Shown here piece after piece: positions 4,894 through 62,840 of a DNA stretch of 64,000 bases. Numbering within the stretch: the stretch's first letter is position 1; each line of letters begins with the position of its first letter. The stretch comes from Pyropia yezoensis (taxonomy: Eukaryota; Rhodophyta; Bangiophyceae; Bangiales; Bangiaceae). The notes beneath the pieces are model-generated. The model saw nothing but the letters and a program-made list of their open reading frames with translations. It was not told the DNA's origin and did no database searches. The position numbers and the translations under genes are program-made. The DNA lies in assembly GCA_009829735.1 (NCBI GenBank), contig CM020619.1, forward strand, positions 5,472,083 through 5,536,082. Direction: 5' to 3'.

Positions 4894-7190
4894 TAGCTCC
4901 CCCTAGTCCGGCACGTCCTCGGGCCGAACCAGGTGCCACCGTGCACAGCCTCGAGCACGTCCACACCGGTGCCGAGGTCGAGCGTCTTCACCCTGGTCAC
5001 GATCACCTGCTCCGGTTCTCTGCCCCCCTTCTCTCCTTCACCTTGGCCCTCTCGTTCCCCCGGAGTCTGGACGTCATGTCCAGTTCCGAGATCCAAGCTG
5101 GGCCCGTGGTTCCGGCGGCGAGTGTTGCGGAGGAGAACTCGGGTAGTCGCGCCCCTCTCCTGCCTCCGGTTCCTCGGGTGTCGATGTCGGCGCCGGTCGC
5201 CACGGCGGGGACGGATCGGGTTCCCCCCGGCTTCTGTGATGCACCCGGTCGAGACCCCCCGGTGGGTCTCCCGGAGATGCTTCTTGGGCAGGACCCTCTG
5301 GCGGCCCGGCGTTACTCCACGGTGGTCGGCAACGCCGGCGCGGGCCCAGTGCCAGCAAGATTGCTTGGACCTCTGGCGCAAGGAACTCCAGCGCGGGGTC
5401 TTGACAGAGATGGATAAGGCTCGTCTTCACACGGCGGACCAGATGCGCCTGGCACAAGACCGCTCCCAGAGCTTCTCGGGTTTCTCTTGGGTTGCTCGTG
5501 TGGAGGATCTCCCCTTCGCGCTGGTGCTGGATCTGCCTTGACCGAGCGTCGCGTGTCCGCGTCCGTTCTCCGGTGGCCGGAGGAGGAGAGTACGTCCACC
5601 GGGCGCTCAAGGTCTGGGACGAGGCGCTCAAGGAGTCGGGGAGCCTGAACTGCGACCCCCGTCCGAGCATGGTCGCTCTGGAGCCGCCTTTCCTGACCCG
5701 GAAGTACTCCAAGTTGTCACCGGCACGGGAGCAAGGCGAGCGACGCGGCCGTCAGCGTGACTTCCTCGTGAGCTGCAACCATCAGGAGTTCTGGAAGCTG
5801 GATAAGGCTAACCGGGCGGCGTACTACCCCAAGGTCATCCCGCAGCAGCAGGAAGTCGAGATCCCGGTCGGTTTGCTCCTTCCAGCATCCCTTCACCTGG
5901 TACTTCTGGACGCCTTGACTCAGGCGTCAATCAAGGGCTTCTTCCACTCGATCCCGTACATGATGTACACGTCCGAGATGACAGTCTTGGCGGCCAACCA
6001 CTGGCTTCACGAGGTCTTGGTGTCCAACCGGCTTTGGTTTCTCCCTGACCTCCTGATGGTCTGGATTGTCGACAAGTTGACCGTCGACTTCCTGTGCAGC
6101 CAGGACGAAGAGTACAAGGGGCTCTTCCAGGCGATGATTGACTTCCGGCGTCTGGTGCCGGTGCATGACCGGAACCTCTTGAACGCGATTGCCGACCAGA
6201 ACCGCCCCGCGTCGGGATGGCTTCGGATGGGCGCAGGTGGTCTACCAGTCTTCTCCGGCCAAGGTGCAGCTGGCGACGCCGCTTCCGGCGTGGCCGCAGC
6301 TAGGTAGCTTTCCTGCCCCGGCCGCCCTTGATCTGCTGCCAGTTGGGCCGCCGGTGCAGGAGTCGGGATGGGCCGCGGCGGTCGGTCAGGCGTCTGCGGC
6401 GGCTCCGCTTCCTCCTGTTGCACCTGTGGCCCCGGTGGCCTCGCCTGAACCGTCGCCGGCGCGTTCACGCCCTGTTTCCGGCTGTGCCGGTACTTCAAGC
6501 TCCTGCGGCACCGCGCCTGTCTGCGGCGAGTCTGGGGGTGACCGTGCGGTCGCCTACCACTCCGGCCGCTCCGCCTCGGACGCCTTCTTCCAACGCCGGC
6601 GGCGCTGTGCCTCCGCTGGAGTTGGGTACTCCGGTTTCGGGGGCCGTTGTGGACCGTCCGGTGGTGTCATCCTCGGGGCGGTTCGAGATTCCGGCGCCGA
6701 CTCTGCGCCTTACCCGCTTCCGGGTGCCTGACTGGTACCTGAACCATGGTGGCCCGACATGCGACCAGTACGACGTCCGTATGATTGAAGACCAGCTGGG
6801 TCGTCTTCCGGTGCAGGTTGAGGGCGTCGGGTCTTCCCTGGTGCTGGGCACTTATGCCAGCGTCTTGAACAACGTGGTTGACCGGGTGTTTGCTTGCGCG
6901 GATAGCGGCCAGATGTCGAACAGCCCGGTGGTTGGCGAACTTCTGGCGACCTTGACGCGGCATGGCTTGGCCCAGCAGTGGTCAGAAACCTTCACTGGCT
7001 TCCAGGGGCGCCGACGGGCACATCTGGATGAGCGGGAGCCCCCGGCAACTACCGGTACTACTCCGATGGCGTCATACCGGGATGCCCCGCGTCCACCGCA
7101 CTACGTCATCCCGTCTTCCTCCGGTTCCCGTCGTGCCGCGGAGGCAGCGCTGGAGGACACTCCGCGGCTCAGCGTCCGCGCCGGGAGTAG
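4886..7190 (+). pseudogene. antisense frame of A2, broken copy
   Basis: Plus-strand counterpart of the 769-codon antisense frame of A3 (33946-36255), at the same place between the 3' LTR and the end of pol. The nucleotide sequence is nearly the same as in A3 throughout, but here the frame is interrupted about five times. It is therefore treated as a fossil copy. The neighbouring pol of A2 is open along its whole length, so decay is not uniform across this copy. Confidence 0.75.
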
Positions 7191-7335
7191 TAGTTGGAGG
7201 CAAGGAGGGTGAGGGTCTTGGGAGAAGCGAGGAGGGAAGAGGCGGAGAGAAGGGTTGCCCGAGCGGGTGCTTGTTTTCCTTGATTGTTCCATGCTTGTAT
7301 TGCGTGTTCTCCTTGATATACCCGTTCCCTTCTTC

Positions 7336-22486: not shown

Positions 22487-22955
22487 TGTGGCAAAAACCA
22501 CATGCACACACGGCACCCAAGTTGGGGCGGTGTGCAAGGGCTGCACCCCGTGTCGGGGGAACCGGAAGAAGTGCAAGTCGCACACACTCTGTCCCTGTTG
22601 TGGGGCAAACCCCCCACGGACAAACAAGAGGATGGTGTGTGGTCCAACAGTTTCTTGGTCGGGACGGGGACGCAGGGCCAAGCCCCGCTGTCCCTCCCCT
22701 TATCCCCCCAGGGTCCACTCAGAATCTCGCCACTCAGAATCTCCCACCCCAGCACCTGCCCACCGGGCCTCACGAAAATTCAAGACGATAAATGCAGAAA
22801 ACCCTCAAATCCAAGTTGGATTTACTACTAAGCTAACTATCCCAAACTTAGGGAATATGGACCCAAATGCAGGGGGAGGAACGGATCAGGCTAGTGGCCT
22901 GCCGCCCCTTGCATGGCACGTGTTGCCCCCCTACCTGGGGGTCAATACTGCCACA
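22487..22955 (-). repeat. family B 3' LTR of B1 (469 bp)
   Basis: Begins TGTGGCAGTA and ends GCCACA on the minus strand. Partner at 30504-30972, third copy at 60090-60558. A purine-rich tract on the minus strand (GAGGAGAGGGGAG, 22956-22968) abuts it and is the likely polypurine tract. Confidence 0.93.
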
Positions 22956-22968
22956 CTCCCCTCTCCTC
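22956..22968 (-). promoter_or_regulatory. polypurine tract of B1
   Basis: Minus strand GAGGAGAGGGGAG directly upstream of the 3' LTR, the expected site of plus-strand DNA priming. The same sequence lies at 60559-60571 in B2. Confidence 0.65.
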
Positions 22969-23122: not shown

Positions 23123-24802
23123 TTGCTCTCCTCAGTTCACACTTCACCATCACCACCACCTCCCCTTCACCTTCCACTGGGCCGCCCCACGCTGGGGAGG
23201 CCACCCGTCTACCCACGATCCGAGTCCCCCTCAACTCGAGGCGGGTCTCGCGCCGCGATAGCCAGAGCGTCTCTCCCCAACTTGGGGAGAGTCATGGCGA
23301 TACCGGGAGTGGAGTCGGACTCTCTTGACGAGCGTATTGAGGACACCACCTACGGTGCAGCACCCGCCGGGACTTCCGGCGGGGGCTCCGCGATCGCTCC
23401 GGGGGATGGGACTCCCGCGTCTCCCGGCTTTTGGTTGACGGCGGGATCTCCCCCTGAGGCGGGACACGTTGTCCCGCGGGAGGCCTTGGGGCGGTGGTTT
23501 TACCCCGCTTGGCCTCTCTATGAGGAGGGGTTGACTGTTCTTCGCTGTGGCCGACTTGGCGCAGCGATGGGTCGGGTATGGGACCGCCTACGGGAGAAGT
23601 ATCCCCGTAGGGTCGGGTTCCCTGCCGGCTTCAGGACGGACCAGTTTGCCTTCCTGGACGATGAGGAGGTTGAGGACGTTCAGCGTGCCAAGGCCATGGT
23701 GGACCGCGGGGGAACTATCCCGGGTCCCGGCGACTTGCCGACCTTAACTTGGGACGCGGTGGCAACTCGCCCCCCGTACCTTCACGAGGCCGATCCGCAC
23801 ACTCATCACTTTGACGTGCGGATGGAGGAAGACTTCCGGCGAGGTCCCTACTTGGTGACCTCGGCTCAACTTGAGCTTCCACAGCAGTCTGCTGCCAGTA
23901 AGGAGCAGTACTATCCGAAGAAGCCCGAGTGGTGGCCTCAAGTTGAGGTCCCCTACGGGTTCCCGGCGTTGCTGCCACGGTTGCTTGACCACTTCGGCTC
24001 TGTCATGTTGACGGCTGGCCCTGATCACCTGGTGTGGGCCATGTTGGCCACCCAGTGGCTCCTCGAGGTCATGTCGACCTGGGTGTCTCGTGTTCAGCGG
24101 CGGGGAGTGCTCTGGCATCTCCCCCTCCGGCTCATCCAAGGTTCGGAACAGCTCACCCCTCAGCTAGTTGCTGAGGGGTGCTCATCAGGACAACTCACTC
24201 TACTTGAGGAGATGCTCCGCCTCCACAAGATCATCGAGTGGGAGAGCATTGAGCACAAGTTGCGCCGCCCCACTCGTGGGCCCAAGGACGATGGCGCACT
24301 TCGCCAGTTCGTATGGGTCGGTCGTGAACTTCACGACGGCCGTGTGGTCCTACGAGAGGGGCTGGGCATCGGGGACTACCCGTATGCCCCGGGGGTGGAT
24401 CGCCACACTGCGCCACCCCCGGACAAGCCCATAGTTATGGCCGTGCCCTCAAATGATGACCATATGACTCAACCTACTGCGGGGGCCCCAAGTCGGGGTC
24501 GCAGTTACACCCGGGTAACGCCACCTCGGCGGGCCCCTCCGCTTCCTCCTGTCCCCTACCAGCCGCACGGGAACATCCCGATCAGCGTGGCCGTGGAGTC
24601 ATCCACCCCGGTGTCCCCCATCTTGGGGGCCACCCTCCTGACGGTATGCCCCAAGTTGGTGTTACCGCCCACGCAGGCAGTGAGGGGAGGCGCCACGCTT
24701 CCAACGCACGCGCCCAAGCTGGGTCGCTTGCAGGCGGTGGTGCAACTTTTACCACGTCCTGTCCGTTTACGGTGCGGACCCCATCGTCACTTTCGATGGT
24801 GA
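23123..24802 (+). pseudogene. antisense protein of family B, incomplete copy in B1
   Basis: Plus-strand frame convergent with pol, nearly identical to the first three quarters of the 704-codon frame of B2. A likely start is the in-frame ATG at 23294 (MAIPGVESDSLDER); the upstream codons are Pro/Ser-rich and may be leader. The folded part has WFYPAWPLYEEGLTVL, RPPYL, EQYYPKKPEWWPQVEVP and LWHLPLRLIQGSEQLT. The C-terminal basic RS-rich part known from B2 is not present, and the frame instead runs into pol sequence of the other strand. It is taken as a broken copy. Confidence 0.6.
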
Positions 24803-30972: not shown

Positions 30973-30977
30973 CCCGC
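30973..30977. repeat. right target-site duplication of B1 (CCCGC)
   Basis: Copy of 22482-22486. Five base pairs is the usual duplication for Ty3/gypsy integrases. Confidence 0.85.
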
Positions 30978-31360
30978 CTCTCGGCCGCAACAGCCCGCAA
31001 GGGGCTGGCGGCAGGCGGCGCGGTGGCGCGGGAGCCAAAGGGCGCTGTAACCGACGCGTCGGCCCGCACCACCGCCCCCGACGCGGCGTGTGTGGCGCGC
31101 AGGTCGGGGCGTAGAGCGCCCCGCCCGCGGGCCAGCACCGCCTCCACCTCGACCGGCCCCTAAGAGGGCGTGCGGCGCAGCACCTCTGCCACCAGGTGCA
31201 CCAGGTGGTGGTAAAGGCGCACGTGCCTGGAGGACTGCTCCGGGCACGCCGAAAGGAAGTGCCGCCCGTCGGCGCCCGCGTTGCGGCCGCAGCGACAGCG
31301 GGGCGCCGGCGGTACAGACCGCGGCGGCGTCCCGAGCCACAGACTATCAGGACCCACCCA
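30978..31360 (-). pseudogene. LINE-like fragment 2: C-terminal zinc finger and endonuclease-like end
   Basis: The minus strand reads CRCGRNAGADGRHFLSACPE, then RHVRLYHHLVHLVAEVLRR, a CCHC-type knuckle typical of the C-terminus of zinc-finger LINEs. One in-frame TAG follows (about 31162). The same frame then continues with ALRPDLRATHAASGAVVRAD and ASVTAPFGSR, a R-P-D ... D-x-S-V-T-x-P pattern like a PD-(D/E)XK (restriction-like) endonuclease. It ends where B1 is inserted. The in-frame stop indicates a dead copy, and the nuclease assignment is by motif only. Confidence 0.6.
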
Positions 31361-32290
31361 AGACCGGGGAGCCCTCAACGTACTCGTGGGGGTGTCAGCG
31401 GGCCCTGCCAGCCAAAAGGGCGCCGGGGCACGGGGAAGAGGACGGTGCTCTCGACGAAGGTGGGTCTGGGGAAGAAGATGGGCGCGACGTCGGTGGGGAT
31501 CGACGGTACAAATGGTCAGTGTCTTTGGTCTGTGTCTGTTGTTTCCCCTCTCGTCTCCCCCAGTGGCGCCGACACCCACACACGATATACTCGCGTCGGG
31601 GTACCCGAGGTGCCCTAAAGCATGCGTTTCCCCATCGCACCGCCGGTAGGCACAGAACGGTCCAAACACAAAGCATGTCTCTCAAAACAAAGCATGGGCG
31701 GGCGTGCGCACTAACGAAGTGCAGCCCCAGTTTGCCCGAAACGAAGGGTGTCCCGTCGATGGCCCCCAGCACGCCCCACCAGCCGGCTCCAAACGCCGGT
31801 CGGCCAGAAGGTCCGACCGGCTGTAAGGGCCAGCAAGGCCAAATTCAATCAATCCCTTGACCGGCCAGCCAGTCACCAACCAGCTGGCCTAATTCAATCA
31901 ATCCAAAAGCCGGCGAGCCAGTCATATCGCACTCAGCCGCCAGCGAGGATGTGTGGTATCCTCAGTGTCGGTGAATCATGTGACTGGTCCTTGATGCCAG
32001 CTTTCAAGCAGCGCAGAGAAGAAAATTCAGGCAGCACAGACGGGGATGTCCGCCCGTGGTTGGTCGACGATGCCATTCGCTCCTCGTTGTCGAGTTTCGA
32101 CGTCCATGACAGGGTTCCGACAGTGCGTTGACGGCGGCTTTCGTGCGGTCGGCCGACACCCGCAAAATGTCAGGGATACAGCGTGGTGTCGCCCAGGAGA
32201 GTGGGGGATTGATGTGGCTTGGGGGGAGTTATCGGGACCGGACATGCAAGGAGAGGTCCCAGTCCATATCCCCTGGGATCCGGGTGGGGA
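31361..32290. other. unassigned sequence inside LINE-like fragment 2
   Basis: About 930 bp between the RT C-terminal part and the zinc-finger part, where the family should be continuous, so it is probably an insertion or rearranged DNA. It contains short repeated words (ATTCAATCAATCC twice, at about 31844 and 31892; GCCAGTCA-type motifs nearby). No gene is recognised. Confidence 0.4.
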
Positions 32291-33375
32291 ATTCAAGGGC
32301 AAATCCTTACACAGACGCACCGCCGCCCGCATAACGGCGCCGGGGATGGCCGTGCCGCCCGTCCCCGGCGTCGGAAGCGCCGACAGCCAGCGGGCCGCCC
32401 CACCCCCCTGGCATGCCGCCATGCCCGCACGCCGCCAGAGCGACAGCTCGGCGTAGAACCGCGTGCGGGCGGCGGCATCGGCGGGGCGGGACAGGTCCCG
32501 CCGCGCCGCCTGTGCCTCTCCCCCCAGGAGAGACTTCCACGTGGGTGGCGAGTACAGCGCCGGGCTGTGTGGCCCGTCGGCCGAGGTGCTGTCGGTCGCA
32601 CCGGCGCTGTACTCAGGGTAGGTGGGGGTGGGGGGTAGGGCAGGGGCTAGAGGGTCGGCGGCCTCGTCGGCCGCCGCGTTGGGCCCCCCCCTCGCCAGCG
32701 ACCACAGCAGGCCGCTGGGAGGGGCCGCGCAGAGCGCCTCATGGGCCGCCAGCAGGCCTAGGAGGGCCTTCCGGAGCGCACCTGCAGCAGGCGCACTGCG
32801 GTCAGGGTCGGGGAGGGGGGCAGGCCGCGCCCCCGGAAGCGAGTCACCCTCCGGGCCCCCGCCGCGTGCCCCCGTTGACGCCCCGGCCGCCTCATCGGGC
32901 GGCCACGGCCCACCGTAGGACGCGACGCGCGGTACAGCCAGCAGGCCGTCCGCCGTGGCGCGCAGTGTGGGGGAGTACGCCTCCCCCGCCCGCAGCGCAT
33001 CCACCCACGACGCCAGCAGAGCAGCGGGTACTACACGCGTGCGGCCGCCGGCAACCAGACCGCCCATGGCGGAGGGGAGTGCCGCACGCTCCAGCACCGC
33101 CGCACGTTTGGCGGTGCTGTCGCGTGCGTCGCACAGCATTCTCCCCAGGGCGGTCTTGGCCTGGGCATCGACGGCCGCGGCCAGCCGGGCGCCGGCCTTC
33201 AGCGGGAGGCAGCGCAGCCAGTAGTTGGCGCGCGGCCCCGCGCAAGGCCGCAGCAGGAGGAATTGCGACTGCAACTCCTCCGCTGGCAGGGCCGCGATCG
33301 CCACCACCAGGCCGCGTTGCTCCACCACGAGGCCGTCCATCCGCGCTGACACAAAAGCGGGGTGTAGCACAATAG
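32291..33375 (-). pseudogene. LINE-like fragment 2: region after the RT (thumb and linker)
   Basis: Open minus-strand frame with FPIVLHPAFVSARMDGLVV, LLLRPCAGPRANYWLRCLPL, RAALPSAMGGLVAGGRTRVV and ARWLSALPTPGTGGTAIPG. These are the blocks that follow the RT in the GPSGL..EHL family. It is interrupted on its 5' side by element A3 (33381-43034), and a few more residues of the same frame are visible at 43040-43130 on the far side. The family match is from block pattern, not from a search. Confidence 0.6.
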
Positions 33376-33380
33376 GAAAC
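33376..33380. repeat. left target-site duplication of A3 (GAAAC)
   Basis: Repeated at 43035-43039 on the other side of A3. Confidence 0.9.
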
Positions 33381-33953
33381 TGTGGTATAAAACTCGATCC
33401 TCTCAGACACGTGTCAATGTCCCTCGGGGGAAAGGGACAGGTAACACAGAAAGGGGAACTACGAGAATGATATGCCTGTTGCCTCACGTGCCTGCTCGCA
33501 GAGCAAACAGATACGCACGGTAGTGCACACGGGGAAGACGAAAGCAAACGCGCAGTTGTCTTTTTCCTGAGGGCGCGGGCCAAGGGCGCCTCGCTGTCCC
33601 TCTTAACGTGCATCTGGGGGAGCCTCGGCACGTTGGCCAGGTAGCCCCCCCCCATAACCCCAAGTGGCCCCGACCCGAGTCTAACCTCGTCAGGTCGGGG
33701 GCCACTATCACTACTAATTCTATTCCCACTCACTAATCTCACACTCGAATTCTCTCAAATCAAGTCCCTCACAAGTATGCAAAAACCCATCAGCAATCCC
33801 TCTCTCACGTGTGGATAGCGTAGTCCACCGCATCCCAGTGCCGGGCACGGGCCACGGCCGCCAACCATCACCACACGGCGGGCGTGTTCTGGCACCTGGT
33901 GCCCTCTGGTTGTAATCCCGGGTCGGCGCCAAGTCGGGGCCAGGGATGCTACA
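33381..33953 (-). repeat. family A 3' LTR of A3 (573 bp)
   Basis: TG...CA termini on the minus strand. Partner at 42462-43034. It contains the GACACGTGTC palindrome (33406-33415) and the inverted repeat (33663-33706). The last bases on the plus strand, GGATGCTACA, supply an ATG that opens the antisense frame. Confidence 0.96.
33386..33392 (+). promoter_or_regulatory. TATAAAA on the antisense strand of the A3 3' LTR
   Basis: A perfect TATA-like box at the outer edge of the LTR, pointing right, that is through the LTR toward the antisense frame at 33946. It lies 20 bp before the GACACGTGTC palindrome. It is the only plausible promoter element for the antisense gene I can see. Whether it is used is unknown; it would give a leader of about 500 nt. 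Confidence 0.4.
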
Positions 33954-36255
33954 TAGCTCCCTCCCTAGTCCGGCACGTCCTCGGGCCGAACCAGGTGCCA
34001 CCGTGCACAGCCTCGAGCACGTCCACACCGGTGCCGAGGTCGAGCGTCTTCACCCTGGTCACGATCACCTGCTCCGGTTCTCTGCCCCCCTTCTCTCCTT
34101 CACCTTGGCCCTCTCGTTCCCCCGGAGTCTGGACGTCATGTCCAGTTCCGAGATCCAAGCTGGGCCCGTGGTTCCGGCGGCGAGTGTTGCGGAGGAGAAC
34201 TCGGGTGGTCGCGCCCCTCTCCTGCCTCCGGTTCCTCGGGTGTCGATGTCGGCGCCGGTCGCCACGGCGGGGACGGATCGGGTTCCCCCGGCTTCTGTGA
34301 TGCACCCGGTCGAGACCCCCCCGGTGGGTCTCCCGGAGATGCTTCTTGGGCAGGACCCTCTGGCGGCCCGGCGTTACTCCACGGTGGTCGGCAACGCCGG
34401 CGCGGCCCAGTGCCAGCAAGATTGCTTGGACCTCTGGCGCAAGGAACTCCAGCGCGGGGTCTTGACAGAGATGGATAAGGCTCGTCTTCACACGGCGGAC
34501 CAGATGCGCCTGGCACAAGACCGCTCCCAGAGCTTCTCGGGTTTCTCTTGGGTTGCTCGTGTGGAGGATCTCCCCTTCGCGCTGGTGCTGGATCTGCCCT
34601 TGACCGAGCGTCGCGTGTCCGCGTCCGTTCTCCGGTGGCCGGAGGAGGAAGAGTACGTCCACCGGGCGCTCAAGGTCTGGGACGAGGCGCTCAAGGAGTC
34701 GGGGAGCCTGAACTGCGACCCCCGTCCGAGCATGGTCGCTCTGGAGCCGCCTTTCCTGACCCGGAAGTACTCCAAGTTGTCACCGGCACGGGAGCAAGGC
34801 GAGCGACGCGGCCGTCAGCGTGACTTCCTCGTGAGCTGCAACCATCAGGAGTTCTGGAAGCTGGATAAGGCTAACCGGGCGGCGTACTACCCCAAGGTCA
34901 TCCCGCAGCAGCAGGAAGTCGAGATCCCGGTCGGGTTTGCTCCTTCCAGCATCCCCTTCACCTGGTACTTCTTGGACGCCTTGACTCAGGCGTCAATCAA
35001 GGGCTTCTTCCACTCGATCCCGTACATGATGTACACGTCCGAGATGACAGTCTTGGCGGCCAACCACTGGCTTCACGAGGTCTTGGTGTCCAACCGGCTT
35101 TGGTTTCTCCCTGACCTCCTGATGGTCTGGATTGTCGACAAGTTGACCGTCGACTTCCTGTGCAGCCAGGACGAAGAGTACAAGGGGCTCTTCCAGGCGA
35201 TGATTGACTTCCGGCGTCTGGTGCCGGTGCATGACCGGAACTTCTTGAACGCGATTGCCGACCAGAACCGCCCGCGTCGGGATGGCTTCGGATGGGCGCA
35301 GGTGGTCTACCAGTCTTCTCCGGCCAAGGTGCAGCTGGCGACGCCGCTTCCGGCGTGGCCGCAGCTAGGTAGCTTTCCTGCCCCGGCCGCCCTTGATCTG
35401 CTGCCAGTTGGGCCGCCGGTGCAGGAGTCGGGATGGGCCGCGGCGGTCGGTCAGGCGTCTGCGGCGGCTCCGCTTCCTCCTGTTGCACCTGTGGCCCCGG
35501 TGGCCTCGCCTGAACCGCCGCCGGCGCGTTCACGCCCTGTTCCGGCTGTGCCGGTACTTCAAGCTCCTGCGGCACCGCGCCTGTCTGCGGCGAGTCTGGG
35601 GGTGACCGTGCGGTCGCGTACCACTCCAGCCGCTCCGCCTCGGACGCCTTCTTCCAACGCCGGTGGCGCTGTGCCTCCGCTGGAGTTGGGTACTCCGGTT
35701 TCGGGGGCCGTTGTGGACCGTCCGGTGGTGTCATCCTCGGGGCGGTTCGAGATTCCGGCGCCGACTCTGCGCCTTACCCGCTTCCGGGTGCCTGACTGGT
35801 ACCTGATCCAAGGTGGTCCGACATGCGACCTGTACGACGTCGGTATGATTCAAGACCAGCTGGGTCGTCTTCCGGTGCAGGTTGAAGGCGTTGGGTCCTC
35901 CCTGGTGCTGGGTACTTACGCCAGCGTCTTGAACAACGTGGTCGACCGGGTGTTTGCTTGCGCGGATAGCGGCCAGATGTCGAGCAGCCCGGTGGTTGGC
36001 GAACTTCTGGCGACCTTGACGCGGCATGGCTTGGCCCAGCAGTGGTCAGAAACCTTCACTGGCTTCCAGGGGCGCCGACGGGCATATCTGGATGAGCGGG
36101 AGCCCCCGGCAACTACCGGTACTACTCCGATGGCGTCATACCGGGATGCCCCGCGTCCACCGCACTGCGTCATCCCGTCTTCCTCCGGTTCCCGTCGTGC
36201 CGCGGAGGCAGCGCTGGAGGACACTCCCGCGGCTCAGCGTCCGCGCCGGGAGTAG
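33946..36255 (+). CDS. antisense accessory protein of family A (unknown function)
   Basis: 769 codons on the strand opposite to gag-pol, between the 3' LTR and the end of pol (about 145 bp separate the two stops). The first ATG is made by the LTR edge, but the ATG at 34138 (MSSSEIQAGPVVPAASVAEE) is a more likely start, giving about 705 residues. Regions after the upstream ATG: Pro-rich head to about 150; a folded, mainly helical part at about 150-440 with FSGFSWVARVEDLPFALVLD, EEEEYVHRALKVWDEAL, RAAYYPKVIPQQQEVEIPVG and LWFLPDLLMVWIVDKLT; an Ala/Pro-rich linker at about 450-600; a second folded part (TLRLTRFRVPDWYL ... YASVLNNVVDRVFACADSG); and a basic end. No signal peptide, zinc finger or catalytic motif is recognised. 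The hydrophobic helical part near 330-420 does not look like an envelope. I do not recognise the family. Confidence 0.75.
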   Translation: MLHSSLPSPARPRAEPGATVHSLEHVHTGAEVERLHPGHDHLLRFSAPLLSFTLALSFPRSLDVMSSSEIQAGPVVPAASVAEENSGGRAPLLPPVPRVSMSAPVATAGTDRVPPASVMHPVETPPVGLPEMLLGQDPLAARRYSTVVGNAGAAQCQQDCLDLWRKELQRGVLTEMDKARLHTADQMRLAQDRSQSFSGFSWVARVEDLPFALVLDLPLTERRVSASVLRWPEEEEYVHRALKVWDEALKESGSLNCDPRPSMVALEPPFLTRKYSKLSPAREQGERRGRQRDFLVSCNHQEFWKLDKANRAAYYPKVIPQQQEVEIPVGFAPSSIPFTWYFLDALTQASIKGFFHSIPYMMYTSEMTVLAANHWLHEVLVSNRLWFLPDLLMVWIVDKLTVDFLCSQDEEYKGLFQAMIDFRRLVPVHDRNFLNAIADQNRPRRDGFGWAQVVYQSSPAKVQLATPLPAWPQLGSFPAPAALDLLPVGPPVQESGWAAAVGQASAAAPLPPVAPVAPVASPEPPPARSRPVPAVPVLQAPAAPRLSAASLGVTVRSRTTPAAPPRTPSSNAGGAVPPLELGTPVSGAVVDRPVVSSSGRFEIPAPTLRLTRFRVPDWYLIQGGPTCDLYDVGMIQDQLGRLPVQVEGVGSSLVLGTYASVLNNVVDRVFACADSGQMSSSPVVGELLATLTRHGLAQQWSETFTGFQGRRRAYLDEREPPATTGTTPMASYRDAPRPPHCVIPSSSGSRRAAEAALEDTPAAQRPRRE
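33954..33966 (-). promoter_or_regulatory. polypurine tract of A3
   Basis: Minus strand AGGGAGGGAGCTA directly upstream of the 3' LTR. The equivalent in A2 (4894-4906) is slightly different but also purine-rich. It lies inside the head of the antisense frame on the other strand. Confidence 0.6.
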
Positions 36256-36400: not shown

Positions 36401-39400
36401 TCAATCCTCTTGTTCCGCATCCGTTGCAGATGAACTCGGCTCGTCCCGAGGGTCTTGGTTGGCCCCATCCTCTTGGTCCTCCTCCGAGTCCGACTCCAGA
36501 ATCTTGCCGGCTCTGGCCACTGGAGTGCTCTCTATCCCGCTCCGTCGCGTGTAGGCACAGACATCCGCGATGGGTAGCCGGTTTGAGGGTTTCCAGGTAT
36601 CATCTGCCGGGTTAAAACCGAACCAGCGTACTCGCAGGTACAGGCGTTTGTCTCTCCAGGCATGGTCCACAAACTTGACGTAGACATATTCCCGACCTTC
36701 TTCTTGGGATAGCCAGGGTACTGCGGCCCGCATGCGCCGGGTCAAGTCCCGTTGGCTTGGCGGTGGAGCTCGGGTGACATGGTCGCTGCTCACGCGGTAC
36801 GGGGAGCCATCCACGTCTAGAAGAAAGGTCCAACCGTCCGTATTCAGGATCTCATAAGGTCCATCCGTCTTCGAGTCCAGCTTCCCCCGGGTCTTGCTAT
36901 GGTTGTCCACAAAGACCCAGTCGCCACCACCCAGTTCCTTGTTCTTTTCCCGAACGCCCTTGTCATAGCCCCGCTTGTATCGCTCCTGGGTCTTCGAGAT
37001 TGACTCCTTGACTCTTGGGAGCAGGAGCTTCAGTTGTTCCAGGAACTCATCCTTTGCCTTGGGACCTGACTTCAGTGCAGGCTGGAGACCGTCTGGTATT
37101 CTTTCCAGGGAGAAGTTGGTCAGCTGCCTTGGGGTGACAAAGTCGAGTGGAGCGACCCCCGTTGTCCGGTGAACTCGGGAGTTGTAGGCTAGAGTGAGGA
37201 CAGCCAGGAGCTCGTCCCAGTCTTCTTGGTGCTCCTCCACGTAGTGCCGTAGCATGTCTACTAGGGTCCGGTTGAATCGTTTCACCTGGCCGTTCGTTTG
37301 AGGGTGGTACGTCGTAGTGTACAAGTTCTTGATGCCCATCAGGTCACAGACTCCTTGGAAGAACAGGGATGCAAACTGGGGACCGTTGTCGGTTAAGACG
37401 GACTCTGGAGGGCCGTAGGCAGCTATCCAGTACTCGCAGAAGGCTGACGTGACATCCAGAGCCGTGATGGTCCTCAGCGGGATTGCTCGAGTGAACTTGG
37501 AGAACCGGTCACATATGATGAGCAGGTATATGTTGCCATTGGATGTTTCAGGTAGGGGCCCCAGGATGTCCATGCTTAAGCTTGCAAAGGGCTCCGCCGC
37601 CGGGAATAGGCGTAGCTTAGAAGTCTTCTTCCTCTGGGACAACCGGTTCCTTGCACACGAAACACAAGCCTCCAGGTACTTATGGACGTCACTGGCCATG
37701 GTTTCCCAGTAATAGTGTCGTCTCATGGAAGCATACATCCGATTGATACCAGGATGTCCGGCCTGGGGAGACGAGTGCTCCAGGCGTAGGATGTCAGCTC
37801 GTAGGCCCCGGGGTACGTAGACTTGAGTGGCCCCATCGAAGGGTGACACCCGTACTAGGAGTCCGTCCGTAGACTCGGAGAAGCGACTGTTCCGGTTCAG
37901 GTCCATTTGGTGGCGAAGCTCCAAGCATTGAGGATCCGTCAGTTGTGCCTCCAGCATCCGGTGAACGGTCACCGGTTGATGAGCTTCAGGTGTCTCATAC
38001 AGGGGAGCGTGCCAGCCACGTCCGACATTCGGGAGGATGAAGCAAGGTATTTCCTCCGGGATAGGACCGGTATCGGCTGCAGGAGTCTCCAGCCGGGACA
38101 TGGTGTCGGCGCAGTGGTGCTCCCTCCCTGCTCTGGTGCACACCTTGTACTTGAACTCCGAAAGGCGTAGGCGCCACCGGGCTACCCTTCCTTGACTGCT
38201 GTCCATACATAGCAGCCACCTTAGGCTGGCGTGGTCCGTCCGGATGAGGAACTCTTGTCCTTCAAGATATGGCCGTAACAGGAAGCAAGCCCAAACGACT
38301 GCCAAGCACTCGCGCTCGGTCGTGGAATAGTTCTTCTCAGCTGGAGTCAAGACGCGACTGTAGTAGCCCATCGGGAGAAAGTGCCAATCAGGTTGCTGCT
38401 GGAGTAGTGAGCACCCCACCTGGACGCCACAGGCATCCGTCTCCAGAACAAACTGGCCCTCCCGCTTGGGTAACGCCAGTACTGGAGTGGTGGTCAGGCG
38501 CTTCTTGAGCTCTTCGAAGGCCGCGGTCTGCTTCTCGTCGAACACCGGGAGTTGTGCGGGAAGCTTCTTGCTGGTCAGCTTGGTCAGTGGCCGGGCAATC
38601 AGAGCATAGTCCCGTACGAACCGGCGATAGACGTTGCACATACCCAGGAAGCTCTTGAGTTCCGTCTGGGTTTTGGGTTGCCGTGCATGCCGGAGGGCCT
38701 TGATGTTCTTCTCATTGACTCGGAGCTCCCCCGGACTCAGCACATGCCCCAGATACTCCACCTCAGTCTCAAACAGGTGGCACTTCTCGGCCTTGAGGGT
38801 AACTCCAGCCTTGGACAGGAGGGCCAGGACCTCCCTAAGGTGCTCCAGGTGTTCCGCTGGGGTCTTGGAGAAAACGATAATGTCATCCAGGTAGACCAAA
38901 CATGTTCTCCACCTTAGCCCGGACAGGATGATGTCGATGGCTCTTTGGAAGGTCGCCGGAGCATTGGTGAGACCAAAAGGAAGACGCTTGCACCGGAATA
39001 GTACCAGGTGGCACGTGAAGGTGGTCTTGTCCTTGTCCTCGTCAGCCAGAGGGATCTGCCAGTAACCGGCATTACAATCCAGCGTCGAGAAGAGGGTGGC
39101 ATCACCAAGAAAGTCGAGGCAATCATCCATCCGGGGTATCGGGTATACGTCCTTGACTGTCATCTCGTTCAGGCGCCGGTAGTCAACGCAGAAACGGAAG
39201 TGACCGCCGGTTTTCGGGACGACTACCACCGGGAAAGCCCACTCGCCATCAGACGGCTCGATAACATCCATCTTGAGCATCTTGTTAACCTGCTTCTCAA
39301 TCTCATCCCGGCGATGAGGTCCGGGCCGATATGGTTGCATGTGCACTGGCTTAGCTTCCGGCTTGAGTTGAGTCCGGTGTAGAGTGGCGTCCATCTTGCC

Positions 39401-40360
39401 CAGCTCTCCCGACCACAGGTGCCGATATTCCTGGAGAAGCTTCTCCAGTGCCTCCTTCAAGTCGGGAGGGACATTTTCTTGCTTGAACTTCGGCATCCCG
39501 GGTGGTGCTTGTTCGGGTTTCGGAGTAGCGCTGCCAGCCTGCTCTTGCTTCGGAGGTACGTCTAAGGCCGTCTAGTTGGATGCCAGTTCTTGTTGCAGGT
39601 TCAGGAGGTCTTCCTTGCTCATAGCACGGGCGGATCCCCGGTGAGGCTCTGCTGTACCAACTCGGGTACCCTTGGCGAGGGTTATTGGCTTCCGGCTCAC
39701 GTTGACGATTAGCACCGAGAACGGGGTGTGCCTTTCTACCTTCTTGTGATGTCCGTGGGCCAAGTATAACCGGTGTTTCGCCAGAAATCCCTTACGTCCG
39801 TAGATCAGGCATTGACCTGCAATCCGGGTCGTTACTTGAACCTTGGTCTTCGAGCGAGGAGGTAGGAGCACCGGTTTGAAGAGAGTCAAGGTAGAGGGTG
39901 GGATGCGTTCCCTCTTGCTCTTGGCTACACGAACCTTGGCGTCCAGATGCTCCAATACCGGTGACACAAACCCATGGTTGAACTGGACCTTCCCTTCTCC
40001 GGGTAGGATGCTCTTGACATGCTGCTTCTGGAAACCCCAGCCTAGGATGAGGGGGACTGATAGGGTCTTGACTACTAGAAAGGGAAAAAGCATTGGTTCA
40101 TTGTTGACATAGATGGCGACAGGAAGACGGCCAAGCGGTCGTAGGGTTTGACCCGAAGCGTCGACGATATGGGTCCGGGTAGGCGCTCTCCAGGCAAGTC
40201 GACGCCAGCCCGGAGGTAACAGGTTCTCAGTGATGACGCTTGGTCCGGCTCCCGTGTCAACCACCGGCGTAACAGCTTGGGGGAGGCTATCCCCCACACG
40301 CATACGAGCATTAATCTTGAGGTTTTCTTTACGCAGGACGAGCAATGTCCCCTTGAACAA
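36401..40360 (-). pseudogene. pol: Pol region of A3
   Basis: Same domain order and nearly the same sequence as the A2 pol: protease (DTGAGPSVI), RT, RNase H, HHCC and integrase core, GPY/F tail, chromodomain-like end. Two open stretches, 40360-39572 and 39496-36401, cover it. It has about one break, so it is listed as broken although most of it is intact. The region 36256-36400 between the two convergent stops holds no gene; its plus strand is purine-rich. Confidence 0.92.
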
Positions 40361-40488
40361 ACAGGGTGTCCAGGCGGCTACCGGTTGAGCGGGTAACTGC
40401 CGTCCTTTCTCCCGGCACGCAAGGGGAGAACAGGTAGAAGAACCCTGCCGTCGGAGATTCGGGAAGACACTTGGGGAGAGCGCCTGCC

Positions 40489-42123
40489 CTACTCGTTTCC
40501 CGGGTCCGAGGAGTCCTCAGAGGCTTCGGTCTCCAGGTCGAAGTCCGTAGGAGCTTCCCTTGCCAGAGCCTCCGTGATGCTCTGTAAGGTTGCCACTCGG
40601 ATTGCGTGTACCTGTGCTTGGTCCATCTTGGAGGGTGCCCGCCGGTCAGCCCAGTTGACCGCCTTTGCAAACACCAGTCGTTGACGCTTGAGCTTCTCCT
40701 GGAGGTCCTTGGGAATGGTCGGGCACTGGTAGGACATGTGATCCTCCTTCTGGCACAGCCAACAAGACCGGAACCGCTGGTTCTTGACTTGCTTGGGGGC
40801 GACCAGGGATGGTTGCTCCTTAGAAATGAAGCCGCCCCACTTGTCCCCTGACCCCATGGGTGAGGCCTCGCCAACTGCGAGTACTGGTACAGGGCTATCA
40901 CCTCCCTTATACTTGTCCGGTCCGGGTCGAACTCGCGACAACGGCTTGGGAGTTGATACCAGGGGAGCTGGGAGGGCCCTGGCTTGCCGGTACTTGCCCT
41001 GGGTGTAGGCCATCAACTGCTGGAAGGTATGTTCTTGATGTTCCTGGTTGTAGTTCTCCGCATCCACTTGAAGATATTCAGGAAGCCCTTCCGAGAAGAT
41101 CATCTTGAGCCTGTCCTCAGGGTAAACGTTGCCACAAGCATCGCTCATCTCCCGGACACGACGGGCGAACGCCTCTGGAGTCTCTTGTCTTTCCATGGTT
41201 GCCCGGTTCAGCCTGCCGACTGCTTTACGCAGAGAGTCCGCGTCAGCGTAGTTGGACAGGAGCCAGTTGACCGCTTCCGGATAACTCGCGACGGTACGTC
41301 CGACAATGTGTCCGGCAGAGTCTGGCAGAACCTGTGCAAGCCGCTGTTCCGCTTCTCCGGTCATGAAGTTAACCAGGAGGTAGAGAGCCTTGCCCTCGGA
41401 CACATCGTTGTCATTGCATGCCTTGACAAACCGGCGCAGGAAGGCAAAGATAAGCGCCGGTCTCTTCCCGGAAAACTTAGGATGTCCCCCGAAGCTCGGC
41501 TGCATTTGCCGGTTCAGGGACGCCATCTTCTTGGCCATCTTCCGGGTGTAACCTTGGTCTTGGTTCTCCAGCCGGTAGTTACCCCAATACGTGACCTTTT
41601 TCAGGGTGGCATCTCCCACTTGATGGGCAGGGAAGTCAAACTCGACTAGCCTGCGCCGGGTGGGACCGGGAGATGCATCCCGATCATATCCCTCCTCAGA
41701 GCTGGAGGAACTGGTCTCGCTGGTGCTAGAGCGACGGCGATGACGCCGACGCCTTCGGCTGCTCCGGTTACCGGTCTTGGAGCTCCCCGCCCCATAGGAT
41801 GCAAGGGGAGGAAAAGCTTGGCCGGTCCCAGGAGTCGAGGTCTCAGGGAGACCCGTAGAGCCAGTCACAACGGTGCCTCTGGCATCGCTAGTGCCCACAG
41901 GAAGAGGTGTATACACCCAGCTGCCATGTGTGGGTCCAGGAGTAAACACACCAGGGGCTATCCCTGGAGACTGAGGAGTAGAACCGACAGGAGGGAGACG
42001 TCTGCTGCGAGCGGACTCAAACGCCGTTGACCCCGGGGTGGCTCCCACAGGAGGAACAGCCGGAGGAACGGGAGCAGGTGGTGCTTGGCCGCCTGTGGAC
42101 TCCAGTCCGCTACCGGATGTCAC
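40489..42123 (-). CDS. gag: Gag of A3
   Basis: 544 codons, the same length as the A2 gag, with about 4-5% amino-acid differences by eye, many conservative. It has the same layout: Pro/Gly-rich head, RS-rich patch, capsid-like helices, CCHC knuckle CWLCQKEDHMSYQC and acidic tail. The open frame over its whole length supports recent activity. Confidence 0.9.
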   Translation of the reverse strand: MTSGSGLESTGGQAPPAPVPPAVPPVGATPGSTAFESARSRRLPPVGSTPQSPGIAPGVFTPGPTHGSWVYTPLPVGTSDARGTVVTGSTGLPETSTPGTGQAFPPLASYGAGSSKTGNRSSRRRRRHRRRSSTSETSSSSSEEGYDRDASPGPTRRRLVEFDFPAHQVGDATLKKVTYWGNYRLENQDQGYTRKMAKKMASLNRQMQPSFGGHPKFSGKRPALIFAFLRRFVKACNDNDVSEGKALYLLVNFMTGEAEQRLAQVLPDSAGHIVGRTVASYPEAVNWLLSNYADADSLRKAVGRLNRATMERQETPEAFARRVREMSDACGNVYPEDRLKMIFSEGLPEYLQVDAENYNQEHQEHTFQQLMAYTQGKYRQARALPAPLVSTPKPLSRVRPGPDKYKGGDSPVPVLAVGEASPMGSGDKWGGFISKEQPSLVAPKQVKNQRFRSCWLCQKEDHMSYQCPTIPKDLQEKLKRQRLVFAKAVNWADRRAPSKMDQAQVHAIRVATLQSITEALAREAPTDFDLETEASEDSSDPGNE

Positions 42124-42440
42124 ACCCAGATCTGCTTCACCCGTAGGGAGAACGCCGGGTTAGGCACCGTCCCCCGCCGTGACCAGGGATGCATCAAGGG
42201 ACGCGGGGTCTACCCCTTCGGGCACCGTCGTGCCAGGGAGGGTAGCCATGTTGGTCTCTTGACAGCCACAGTCCAGTTGCCTGCGTGTCCAACGATCGCC
42301 AGACCACAAGAGAGGGGTTAGAGAGCCAGGAATGGGATTCCCGTGAACGGGTGCAAATAATTCCCAAACCACAGAAAAAGACAGAACAGGAACAACCCAA
42401 CCGCTGCTCCCAAATGTCTCTTCTCAAACACTCCAATCAT

Positions 42441-42461: not shown

Positions 42462-43034
42462 TGTGGTATAAAACTCGATCCTCTCAGACACGTGTCAATA
42501 TCCCTCGAGGGAAAGGGACAGGTAACACAGAAAGGGGAACTACGAGAATGGTATGCCTGTTGCCTCACGTGCCTGCTCGCAGAGCAAACAGATACGCACG
42601 GTAGTGCACACGGGGAAGAGGAAAGCAAACGCGCAGTTGTCTTTTTCCTGAGGGCGCGGGCCAAGGGCGCCTCGCTGTCCCTCTTAACGTGCATCTGGGG
42701 GAGCCTCGGCACGTTGGCCAGGTAGCCCCCCCCCATAACCCCGAGTGGCCCCGACCCGAGTCTAACCTCGTCAGGTCGGGGGCCACTATCACTACTAATT
42801 CTATTCCCACTCACTAATCTCACACTCGAATTCTCTCAAATCAAGTCCCTCACAAGTATGCAAAAACCCATCAGCAATCCCTCTCTCACGTGTGGATAGC
42901 GTAGTCCACCGCATACCAGTGCCGGGCACGGGCCACGGCCGCCAACCATCACCACACGGCGGGCGTGTTCTGGCACCTGGTGCCCTCTGGTTGTAATCCC
43001 GGGTCGGCGCCAAGTCGGGGCCAGGGATGCTACA
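42462..43034 (-). repeat. family A 5' LTR of A3 (573 bp)
   Basis: Partner of 33381-33953, followed at once by GAAAC (43035-43039). Confidence 0.96.
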
Positions 43035-43039
43035 GAAAC
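43035..43039. repeat. right target-site duplication of A3 (GAAAC)
   Basis: Copy of 33376-33380. Confidence 0.9.
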
Positions 43040-44208: not shown

Positions 44209-44283
44209 ATGCTAGCAGGATTGTAGCCGGCACTTGCTCGACCTGACGTTTGCCCCACAGCCCTGTTTGGTCATCCGACTCGC

Positions 44284-45870: not shown

Positions 45871-45932
45871 CTCGCCGTCCGCCCCCCGGTCCAAGACGAC
45901 CAGCCCCCCCGTGGGCACTGAGCCCATCCGCA

Positions 45933-52240: not shown

Positions 52241-52299
52241 CATTTATCAGACGACCGGCCCCTTCCTGGAAGCAGGACCCGGCTGCCTTGCAGTGCCTC

Positions 52300-60725: not shown

Positions 60726-62840
60726 ATGCTCTCCTCCGTTCACACTTCACCATCACCACCACCTCCCCTTCACCTTCCACTGGGCCGCCCCACGCTGGGG
60801 AGGCCACCCGTATACCCACGATCCGAGTCCCCCTCAACTCGAGGCGGGTCTCGCGCCGCGATAGCCAGAGCGTCTCTCCCCAACTTGGGGAGAGCCATGG
60901 CGACCCCGGGTGTGGAGACGGACTCTCTAGATGAGCGTATGGAGGACACCTCCTACGGTGCAGCACCCGCCGGGACTTCCGGCGGGGGCTCCGCGATCGC
61001 TCCGGTGGACGGGACTCCCGCGTCGCCCGGCTTTGGGTTGACGGCGGGATCTCCCCCTGAGGCGGGACACGTTGTCCCGCGGGAGGCCTTGGGGCGGTGG
61101 TTTTACCCCGCTTGGCCTCTCTATGAGGAGGGGTTGACTGTTCTTCGCTGTGGCCGACTTGGCGCAGCGATGGGTCGGGTATGGGACCACCTACGGGAGA
61201 AGTATCCCCGTAGGGTCGGGTTCCCTGCCGGCTTCAGGACGGACCAGTTTGCCTTCCTGGACGATGCGGAGGTTGAGGACGTTCAGCGTGCCAAGGCCAT
61301 GGTGGACCGCGGGGGAACTATCCCGGGTCCCGGCGACTTGCCGACCTTTACTTGGGACGCGGTGGCAACTCGCCCCCCGTACCTTCACGAGGCCGATCCG
61401 CACACTCATCACTTTGATGTGCGGATGGAGGAAGACTTCCGGCGAGGTCCCTACTTGGTGACCTCGGCTCAACTTGAGCTTCCACAGCAGTCTGCTGCCA
61501 GTAAGGAGCAGTACTATCCGAAGAAGCCCGAGTGGTGGCCTCAAGTTGAGGTCCCCTACGAGTTCCCGGCGTTTATGCCACGGTTGCTTGACCACTTCGG
61601 CTCCGTCATGTTGACGGCTGCCCCTGATCACCTGGTGTGGGCCATGTTGGCCACCCAGTGGCTCCTCAAGGTCATGTCGACCTGGGTGTCCTGTGTTCAG
61701 CGGCGGGGGATGCTCTGGCATCTCCCCCTCCGGCTCCTCCAAGGTTTGGAACAGCTCACCCCTCAGCTAGTTGCTGAGAGGTGCTCATCAGGACAACTCA
61801 CTCTACTTGAGGGGATGCTCCGGCTCCATAAGTTTATCGAGTGGGAGAGCATTGAGCACAAGTTGCGCCGCCCCACTCGTGGGCCCAAGGACGATGGCGC
61901 ACTTCGCCAGTTCGTGTGGGTCGCTCGTGAACTTCACGACGGCCGTGTGGTCCTACGAGAGGGGTTGGGCATCGGGGACTACCCGTATGCCCCGGGGGTG
62001 GATCGCCACACTGCGCCACCCCCGGACAAGCCCATAGTTATGGCCGTGCCGTCCTATGATGACCATATGACTCAACCCACTGCGGGGGCCCCAAGTCGGG
62101 GTCGCAGTTGCACCCGGGTACCGCCACCTCGGCGGGCCCCTCCGCTTCCTCCTGTTCCTTTCCAACCTCACGGGAACATCCCGATCAGCGTGGCCGTGGA
62201 GTCTTCCACCCCGGTGTCCCCCAACTTGGGGGCCACCCTCCTGACGGTATGCCCCAAGTTGGTGTTGCCGCCCCCGCCTCTAACCTCAGAGATGATGATC
62301 ACCACGTTGGTGCGCACCATTTCCTGGTTGGCCGCGTCGACCGCCACCCTACAGAATTGCGAGACTCCTCAACTTGAGGCGCGCGTTCGTACTGCAGTGG
62401 CGACAGCGAGTTGCGAGTCGGTGGCGGAGTTTATGACAGCCGAGGTGGCTCGCATTTGGGCTATTATGCCCCTGCCAGCCCCACTTGGGCGTGGCAAACG
62501 TCGCGCGAGCCGGGCATACTCGCCTCCTCGCCGTCGTCGCCGACACTCGCGGCGCTCTCCTTCCGTATCGGAAGACGAGTTGTCTTACTCCGTTTCGGAG
62601 TCCTCTACCCCGTCGAAGACGGAGTCTGTCCAGCGTCTGCGTCGCAAACTTGCGCGCAAGACCATGCAGAAAAGTGGCCACGGTCGGCGCCACTTGCGCG
62701 ACCGTGAGGGGCGCGACGGTTCCGACTTGGAGCCGCCGCCCCCTCCAACAAGTGGAGACCGTTATCGGCGTGGGTCTCGCCGCTCGCCTCCACGTGAGGG
62801 CGAGGGCCGTGGAGTGGGAGAGTCTAGCATGCGTGCCTAA
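60726..62840 (+). CDS. antisense accessory protein of family B (unknown function)
   Basis: 704 codons on the strand opposite to gag-pol, between the 3' LTR and the end of pol. The in-frame ATG at 60897 (MATPGVETDSLDERMEDTSY) is a likely start, giving about 647 residues. The folded body has WFYPAWPLYEEGLTVLRCG, DAEVEDVQRAKAMVDRGG, WDAVATRPPYLHEAD, EQYYPKKPEWWPQVEVP and LWHLPLRLLQGLEQLT. A Pro-rich linker follows, then a short helical part (EMMITTLVRTISWLAASTAT). The C-terminus is Arg/Ser-rich (RRASRAYSPPRRRRRHSRRS, later RRGSRRSPPREGEGR). The pattern YYPK...(Q/E)VE(V/I)P, A..WL..V and LW.LP..L......LT is shared with the family A antisense protein. The basic RS tail suggests RNA binding or nuclear location; that is inference. 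Confidence 0.75.
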   Translation: MLSSVHTSPSPPPPLHLPLGRPTLGRPPVYPRSESPSTRGGSRAAIARASLPNLGRAMATPGVETDSLDERMEDTSYGAAPAGTSGGGSAIAPVDGTPASPGFGLTAGSPPEAGHVVPREALGRWFYPAWPLYEEGLTVLRCGRLGAAMGRVWDHLREKYPRRVGFPAGFRTDQFAFLDDAEVEDVQRAKAMVDRGGTIPGPGDLPTFTWDAVATRPPYLHEADPHTHHFDVRMEEDFRRGPYLVTSAQLELPQQSAASKEQYYPKKPEWWPQVEVPYEFPAFMPRLLDHFGSVMLTAAPDHLVWAMLATQWLLKVMSTWVSCVQRRGMLWHLPLRLLQGLEQLTPQLVAERCSSGQLTLLEGMLRLHKFIEWESIEHKLRRPTRGPKDDGALRQFVWVARELHDGRVVLREGLGIGDYPYAPGVDRHTAPPPDKPIVMAVPSYDDHMTQPTAGAPSRGRSCTRVPPPRRAPPLPPVPFQPHGNIPISVAVESSTPVSPNLGATLLTVCPKLVLPPPPLTSEMMITTLVRTISWLAASTATLQNCETPQLEARVRTAVATASCESVAEFMTAEVARIWAIMPLPAPLGRGKRRASRAYSPPRRRRRHSRRSPSVSEDELSYSVSESSTPSKTESVQRLRRKLARKTMQKSGHGRRHLRDREGRDGSDLEPPPPPTSGDRYRRGSRRSPPREGEGRGVGESSMRA

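What the first reader, a model, noticed from the sequence alone, without database searches (positions are those of the whole stretch)
33946..36255. Long open reading frame on the antisense strand of a Ty3/gypsy element, between pol and the 3' LTR
Copy A3 carries an uninterrupted 769-codon plus-strand frame convergent with its minus-strand pol. It is not a shadow of pol or gag, since the pol frame ends about 145 bp away and the sense strand here has no long frame. It has folded-looking blocks separated by an Ala/Pro-rich linker. Antisense genes from 3' LTRs are known in deltaretroviruses (HBZ), and extra antisense frames between pol and the 3' LTR are reported in some plant Ty3/gypsy (Tat) elements. 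I know of none with this protein.
Basis: partly seen in the sequence, partly recalled or inferred. Interest (0 to 1): 0.88.

Follow-up and report, generated by a model that had tools for sequence, protein, structure and literature searches.

The report
Antisense gene in red-algal retrotransposons
Retrotransposons in the genome of what appears to be the nori alga carry an extra gene on the strand opposite their usual genes, and the pattern of mutations shows that evolution keeps its protein intact, although what the protein does is not yet known.

Summary
Copy A3 is a complete Ty3/gypsy insertion (573-bp LTRs, 5-bp target duplication); its plus-strand frame 33946-36255 converges with minus-strand gag-PR-pol; the likelier start is ATG 34138 (705 aa). 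Contig sizes match Pyropia yezoensis (nori). The frame is no chance opening: variants shared between copies sit at codon position 3 in 24 of 34 cases (family A, omega about 0.16; pol 0.26, gag 0.34) and 25 of 29 (family B, 0.08). In the half of B not used to retrieve copies, 8 of 8 shared variants are synonymous while private ones look neutral (0.84). The same convergent gene follows pol in at least four families (A, B, K, M); a tryptophan-rich core links B, K and M clearly, A through B only. No credible Pfam, NCBIfam or PDB sequence match was found; the TRP28 domain of plant Retand antisense proteins was not found in this genome; both structure models failed (pLDDT about 30). Best reading: an antisense accessory gene of the described aORF-3R kind, with a protein family new to my searches, probably a nuclear regulator of the element. 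Transcription, localisation and function are untested. Known architecture; new protein family and host lineage.

The parts
34138..36255 (+). Antisense gene of family A, copy A3 (705 aa; alternative upstream ATG at 33946 gives 769 aa)
   Evidence: open frame; codon-level constraint among 21 copies
34732..35223 (+). Conserved tryptophan-rich core (residues 199-362) shared with family B
   Evidence: BLASTP and hhalign with family B; 164-aa query 34735-35226 returned 150 scored copies, none with a stop inside, 98-100% identical
35461..35580 (+). Richest stretch of the Ala/Pro-rich linker (residues 442-481)
33381..33953 (-). 3' LTR of copy A3 (573 bp)
   Evidence: 98.95% identical to 42462-43034
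42462..43034 (-). 5' LTR of copy A3
33376..33380 (.). Target-site duplication, low side (repeated at 43035-43039)
   Evidence: flanks printed
36401..39571 (-). pol: RT, RNase H, integrase, weak chromodomain-like C-terminus
   Evidence: Pfam
39572..40516 (-). PR frame; in this copy an in-frame stop separates it from RT, absent from the majority of 17 copies
40489..42159 (-). gag with zinc-knuckle-like match under cut-off
33386..33392 (+). TATA-like heptamer in the 3' LTR in the antisense direction; candidate only
   Evidence: only this one LTR scanned
60897..62840 (+). Antisense gene of family B, copy B2 (647 aa)
23294..24802 (+). Antisense gene of family B, copy B1, altered near its end; converges with minus-strand pol 25149-27752
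22487..22965 (-). 3' LTR of copy B1 (5' LTR at 30504-30982; copy B2 LTR at 60090-60568)
4894..7212 (+). Antisense region of another family A copy (W1), broken by 12 indels of 1-2 bp

Best explanation
The frame is a real protein-coding accessory gene of the retrotransposon, carried antisense to gag-pol between pol and the 3' LTR. Most likely it is read from a promoter in or next to the 3' LTR into a convergent mRNA, and gives a soluble, largely helical protein with a conserved tryptophan-rich core. The role I think most likely is a nuclear regulator of the element's own RNA, chromatin or pre-integration complex. Shown here: the open frame, codon-level purifying selection in two families, and a gene at the same place and strand in at least four families, three of them clearly homologous and the fourth (A) linked through B. 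Inferred: transcription, nuclear entry (Arg/Ser-rich C-terminal regions in B, K and M; none in A) and regulatory function. Separate estimates: coding and conserved 0.93; made from an antisense mRNA 0.85; nuclear regulator 0.45.
For: Openness beyond chance. Shared variants: A 24 of 34 at codon position 3, omega about 0.16 (21 copies); B 25 of 29, omega about 0.08 (10 copies); in the half of B outside the retrieval query 8 of 8 synonymous, P 0.0004, against 0.84 for private variants there. For scale, pol 0.26 and gag 0.34. Related gene in family B, and in families K and M found 3' of pol on the opposite strand. Whole-genome search with the M core reaches K copies at E 3.5e-7 and B copies from 4.7e-6. 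Shuffle tests support B-M, B-K, M-K and A-B. Grande gene23, in the same position, is transcribed antisense and its product is nuclear (PMC7264820, passages).
Against: No transcript or protein evidence. All A copies tested for codon constraint, apart from A3, were retrieved by similarity to the antisense protein itself, and in the queried part of B even private variants look constrained (0.15), so retrieval bias is real there. A is not directly related to M or K beyond chance (P 0.076 and 0.39), and with a B-M-K profile an unrelated frame and one of 2000 shuffles score among the A copies. A has no basic cluster. Only one LTR was scanned for promoter motifs, and the motif is weak evidence. No fold was obtained.
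Confidence: 0.6

Rival explanations
1. The gene is real but not regulatory: its product serves particle assembly, RNA packaging or reverse transcription, as a second structural or chaperone protein made from the antisense strand.
For: Constraint is as strong as on pol and gag; basic Arg/Ser-rich regions in B, K and M would suit RNA binding as well as nuclear entry.
Against: A separate gag is present; the protein matches no gag or capsid family in Pfam. A protein made from an antisense mRNA would have to reach the particle in trans.
Confidence: 0.2
2. The antisense transcript acts as RNA (double-stranded RNA or small-RNA control of the element) and the open frame is incidental.
For: Such a role is discussed for antisense transcripts of LTR elements (PMC7264820, passages).
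Against: Does not explain third-position variation in two families or protein-level similarity between families.
Confidence: 0.08
3. A captured host gene carried along passively.
For: Gene transduction by LTR elements is described in plants (PMC7264820, passages).
Against: Present in four families at the same place and strand and under selection. The genome searches with A, B, K and M queries listed many copies and showed no obvious lone host homologue, but the lists are capped and I did not check each place.
Confidence: 0.08
4. Artefact: the apparent constraint comes from retrieval by protein similarity or from a sense-strand frame whose third positions coincide.
For: The A copies tested other than A3 were top protein hits; in the queried half of B private variants also look constrained (0.15); sense frame 1 shows a low ratio too (0.26 in A; 0.21 in B).
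Against: That sense frame has 13 stops in the majority sequence of A and fewer synonymous changes than the antisense frame (21 against 25). The half of B outside the query shows 8 of 8 synonymous shared variants and near-neutral private ones.
Confidence: 0.04

Closest known systems
Antisense ORFs of plant Retand-lineage Ty3/gypsy elements with the TRP28 domain (PF04195)
   Same: Long frame antisense to gag-pol between pol and 3' LTR, a regular feature of the lineage (97% of clusters, PMC11963269, passages)
   Different: No TRP28 match in this whole genome at E up to 10; A, B, K and M proteins match no TRP28 in Pfam scans
gene23 of maize Grande, and the antisense ORFs of RIRE2, its relatives and PvRetro13 (aORF-3R)
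   Same: Same position and orientation; gene23 is transcribed antisense and its product is nuclear (PMC7264820, passages)
   Different: Flowering-plant elements; sequences were not compared here
brtn of Boty elements in Botrytis cinerea
   Same: Additional antisense gene of an LTR element outside plants (PMC7264820 and PMC8365987, passages)
HBZ and other antisense genes of deltaretroviruses
   Same: Antisense gene at the 3' LTR end; HBZ is nuclear and regulatory (PMC11963269, passages)
   Different: No bZIP or other Pfam domain at E up to 1; HBZ itself was not compared; analogy only

Membership tests
[quoted passage not shown]
   A. B. For K and M the frame follows pol, but the LTR was not mapped
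Antisense additional ORF between pol and 3' LTR (aORF-3R) | Orientation opposite to gag-pol | tested here: met
   19 of 27 RT rows have an antisense place downstream, each on the opposite strand, 8 of 27 have none listed
Antisense additional ORF between pol and 3' LTR (aORF-3R) | Present in all or most copies of the family | tested here: inconclusive
   43 of 58 scored A copies have no stop, 150 of 150 for the core, but copies were found by this gene, so copies lacking it would be missed
Antisense additional ORF between pol and 3' LTR (aORF-3R) | Antisense transcription | not testable with these tools
   No transcript data at hand
Retand-type antisense protein | TRP28 domain (PF04195) | tested here: not met
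   0 matches in the genome at E up to 10; none in Pfam scans
HBZ-like deltaretroviral antisense protein | bZIP domain (recalled as the defining feature) | tested here: not met
   No Pfam family at E up to 1 for the A protein
Boty brtn | Sequence similarity to brtn | not tested
   Sequence not available; only passages mentioning it were seen
Ty3/gypsy element | PR, RT, RNase H, integrase in that order; short target duplication | tested here: met
   Pfam order, with PR under its cut-off (19.5 against 20.7 bits); 5-bp duplications can be read in 9 of the 15 copies with two LTR hits (flanks)
Chromovirus | Chromodomain at the C-terminus of integrase | tested here: inconclusive
   Chromo match E 0.012, 16.0 bits, under the cut-off of 25.1
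Envelope-like additional ORF | Sense orientation and a membrane helix | tested here: not met
   Antisense; maximum mean hydropathy over 19 residues 1.54 in A and 1.2-1.4 in B, K and M

The most novel reading that the evidence does not exclude
A protein family not described before, encoded antisense in several Ty3 lineages of a red alga since before those lineages split, acts as the elements' own nuclear regulator. Together with plant TRP28 genes, fungal brtn and HBZ this would mean that antisense accessory genes at the 3' LTR arose independently several times and are a general solution of LTR elements rather than a curiosity.
Probability: 0.35. Interest if true: 0.78.

Novelty: new variant of a known kind. 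Interest (0 to 1): 0.62.

Why it matters
The antisense genes of LTR elements that I met in the literature seen here come from plants, a fungus and deltaretroviruses, and for the plant ones the reviews call the function unknown (PMC7264820 and PMC11963269, passages). Here one is kept by selection about as strictly as pol and gag, and occurs in at least four families of one compact genome for which PacBio transcriptome data are mentioned (PMC7423979, passages). That makes the question of what such genes do directly testable. Gene models in that paper were predicted from the repeat-masked genome (same passages), which may be why such genes would go unannotated.

Tried and rejected
Chance openness: rejected. 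Shadow of a sense gene: rejected. TRP28 relative: no match in this genome (in its 14 control genomes the model rang only in E. coli, under the cut-off, so that control has no positive). Known domain: no Pfam family at E up to 1 for A, B and K; one chance-level match for M (E 0.34, far under its cut-off); none in NCBIfam at E up to 0.1 for the four. PHROGs and PADLOC were not scanned. PDB sequences: the A profile gave three weak Rieske-protein matches (best E 0.018), all within residues 471-558 in and after the Ala/Pro-rich linker, which I judge to be composition; the B profile gave none at E up to 1. Relatives elsewhere: viral contigs (A and B cores) and prokaryote contigs (A core) gave none by tblastn at 1e-3. 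Structure: both AlphaFold jobs gave mean pLDDT 32.5 and 29.9, so no fold search was made. Codon usage: the antisense frame correlates with pol and gag (0.63, 0.65), but so does an unused frame (0.68, 0.59), so not decisive. Promoter motifs: one TATA-like heptamer in the antisense direction and none in the sense direction in the one LTR scanned. Family C (L041) was meant as a look at a shorter family, but the stretch appears to lie outside the element, so it tells nothing firm. Chlamydomonas REM1, which I recall as having an extra ORF, was searched for; the listing showed no description of it.

Errors of mine: one search did not turn the minus-strand B loci, so its B counts are wrong and are replaced, in which two of eleven B loci (L012, L019; indel or partial match) were dropped. 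In one search the broken copy W1 was left out of the antisense test; pol used 17 and gag 15 of 22 copies because the rest were incomplete there. One search failed and was redone. A first attempt to hand in this report was garbled in form.

Full report
Host. The window lies in an assembly of 107.5 Mb in 11 contigs whose three large contigs are 43.6, 34.3 and 29.4 Mb. These sizes match the three scaffolds published for Pyropia yezoensis, the nori alga (43.6, 34.3 and 29.4 Mbp; PMC7423979, passages). The identification is my inference from those sizes. That paper reports 48% repeats, with LTR retrotransposons predominant, and gene models predicted from the repeat-masked genome (same passages).

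Anatomy. Copy A3 is a complete insertion on the minus strand: 573-bp LTRs at 33381-33953 and 42462-43034, 98.95% identical, with a 5-bp target duplication. It carries gag 40489-42159, PR 39572-40516 and RT-RNase H-integrase 36401-39571. In this copy an in-frame stop separates PR from RT; the majority of 17 copies lack it, so A3 is not an intact element although its antisense frame is open. [quoted passage not shown] ATG 33946 falls in the last bases of the LTR; ATG 34138 gives 705 aa.

More than chance. With the region's dinucleotides, 0 of 3000 simulations reached the observed open run. Genome-wide, 58 A copies were scored, 43 of them without a stop (24193 first-look candidates, best-first list). 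A 164-aa core query gave 150 scored copies of 1844 candidates, none with a stop inside (also best-first). Of 22 copies examined (A3, W1 and 20 fetched), 15 gave two LTR hits for comparison, 95.8-100% identical, so many insertions are young.

Selection. Variants shared by two or more copies arose mainly in the replicating lineage, private ones mainly after insertion (reasoning, not a tool result). In family A (21 copies) 24 of 34 shared variants sit at codon position 3 of the antisense frame, omega about 0.16; for pol (17 copies) it is about 0.26 and for gag (15 copies) about 0.34; private variants give 0.68, 0.80 and 0.79. In family B (10 copies) 25 of 29 shared variants sit at position 3, omega about 0.08; private ones give 0.42. 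Copies were found by protein similarity, and this bias shows: in the part of B used as the query, private variants give 0.15. The clean test is the half of B outside the query: 8 of 8 shared variants are synonymous (P 0.0004) while private ones give 0.84. For A the whole protein was the query, so its figures may be somewhat low. One sense frame whose third positions coincide also looks constrained, as it must (0.26), but it holds 13 stops in the majority sequence and has fewer synonymous changes, 21 against 25.

Other families. The window's second Ty3 family, B, has its own convergent frame between pol and 3' LTR (23294-24802 and 60897-62840; LTRs). A and B antisense proteins align over 166 columns at 22% (E 3e-6; hhalign E 1.5e-4, probability 52%); their pol is 52% identical and a gag segment 35%. 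From RT hits of other families I fetched three stretches downstream. Two of three showed a long antisense frame right after pol: L042 (family K, 716 aa to the edge; 883 with the adjoining piece L044; 995 in the genome) and L043 (family M, 608 aa; 941 in several other copies). The third, L041, seems to lie outside its element. M and K antisense proteins align at 29% (E 5e-9), like the tails of their pol (29%, E 2e-9); M and B at 22% (E 7e-7); M and A only at E 0.028. The M core searched against the whole genome returns graded M subfamilies, K copies at E 3.5e-7 and B copies from 4.7e-6, the window's own B1 copy at 9.4e-5 (150 scored of 1174 candidates). The K core returns M copies from 3.9e-7 and 724-aa B-type frames at about 0.002. 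Shuffle tests, 2000 each: M-K P 1.0e-9, B-M 1.4e-6, B-K 1.7e-6, A-B 1.2e-5; A-M 0.076 and A-K 0.39 are not significant. A B-M-K profile ranks A copies below B but near the top of 2440 frames and 2000 shuffles at weak E-values (0.014 to 0.25); one frame that is not the antisense gene (E 0.046) and one shuffle (0.11) fall among them, and the A copies are not independent. So A belongs to the family through B, with moderate support.

Position. Of the 150 RT rows I examined the 27 that match from profile position 1. For 19 of 27 one of 58 antisense places listed lies 3.5-5.2 kb downstream, every one on the opposite strand; 8 of 27 have none in that list. The other 123 rows were not examined, so I cannot say which families lack the gene.

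The protein. The models suggest helices in the core and, in B, two strands after it, but at very low confidence. B, M and K have Arg/Ser-rich stretches (55%, 45% and 82.5% R+S in the richest 40 residues; A 30%), and no membrane helix is evident in any. A has no window of ten residues with five or more Lys/Arg; B has many. Domain and PDB sequence searches gave nothing credible.

Mechanism. I propose an antisense mRNA from the 3' LTR region giving a nuclear accessory protein that tunes the element's expression or integration. Coding and conservation are shown; the transcript, the nuclear site and the role are inferred from position, from the basic regions in B, K and M, and from Grande gene23, which is transcribed antisense and nuclear (PMC7264820, passages). 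Retand elements of flowering plants carry antisense genes in the same place, 97% of clusters with a TRP28 domain (PMC11963269, passages). That domain was not found here, so the likeness is one of architecture, not of demonstrated descent.

Novelty. The kind of gene is known; I found no paper on this protein family or on antisense genes in red-algal LTR elements. The searches were (red algae; algal genome; Porphyra; Rhodophyta; Pyropia), judged by listings and starts of abstracts only. Much subscription literature is not held, and the large protein database was switched off, so unnamed protein records may exist.

Noticed in passing
window 1-13967: Two family A elements in tandem sharing one middle LTR (about 4339-4893); second partial copies also appear beside the first in several fetched loci such as L023, L026, L032 and L035.
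   Followed up: partly
window 3839-4338 and 4894-7212: A run of exactly 500 N next to a copy (W1) whose antisense region has 12 indels of 1-2 bp while most other copies have none; perhaps uncorrected long-read error beside an assembly gap.
   Followed up: partly
L042 3-692: The pol of family K ends in a stretch matching Dam, DNA N-6-adenine-methyltransferase (PF05869, E 6.2e-8, 32.9 bits, over the cut-off of 28.1).
   Followed up: no
window 39575-40516 (-): The PR frame also has a weak dUTPase-like match (PF00692, E 0.016, under the cut-off).
   Followed up: no
window 44227-48653 and 50755-55655 (+): Two plus-strand elements that look like Ty1/copia by eye, in broken frames; not searched.
   Followed up: no
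window 17424-18896 (-) and 32027-33754 (-): Very GC-rich stretches (76% in 18001-22000) with frames that by eye resemble reverse transcriptase of non-LTR elements; not searched.
   Followed up: no
window 13734-15311 (-): A 525-codon frame from outside the element runs into the LTR; it looks ankyrin-like by eye, perhaps a host gene cut by the insertion.
   Followed up: no
G000 C1:39368555 and C1:39374759; C1:23119020 and C1:23125666: Other Ty3 families repeat at only 6.2 and 6.6 kb spacing, which leaves little room for such an antisense gene; they may lack it.
   Followed up: no
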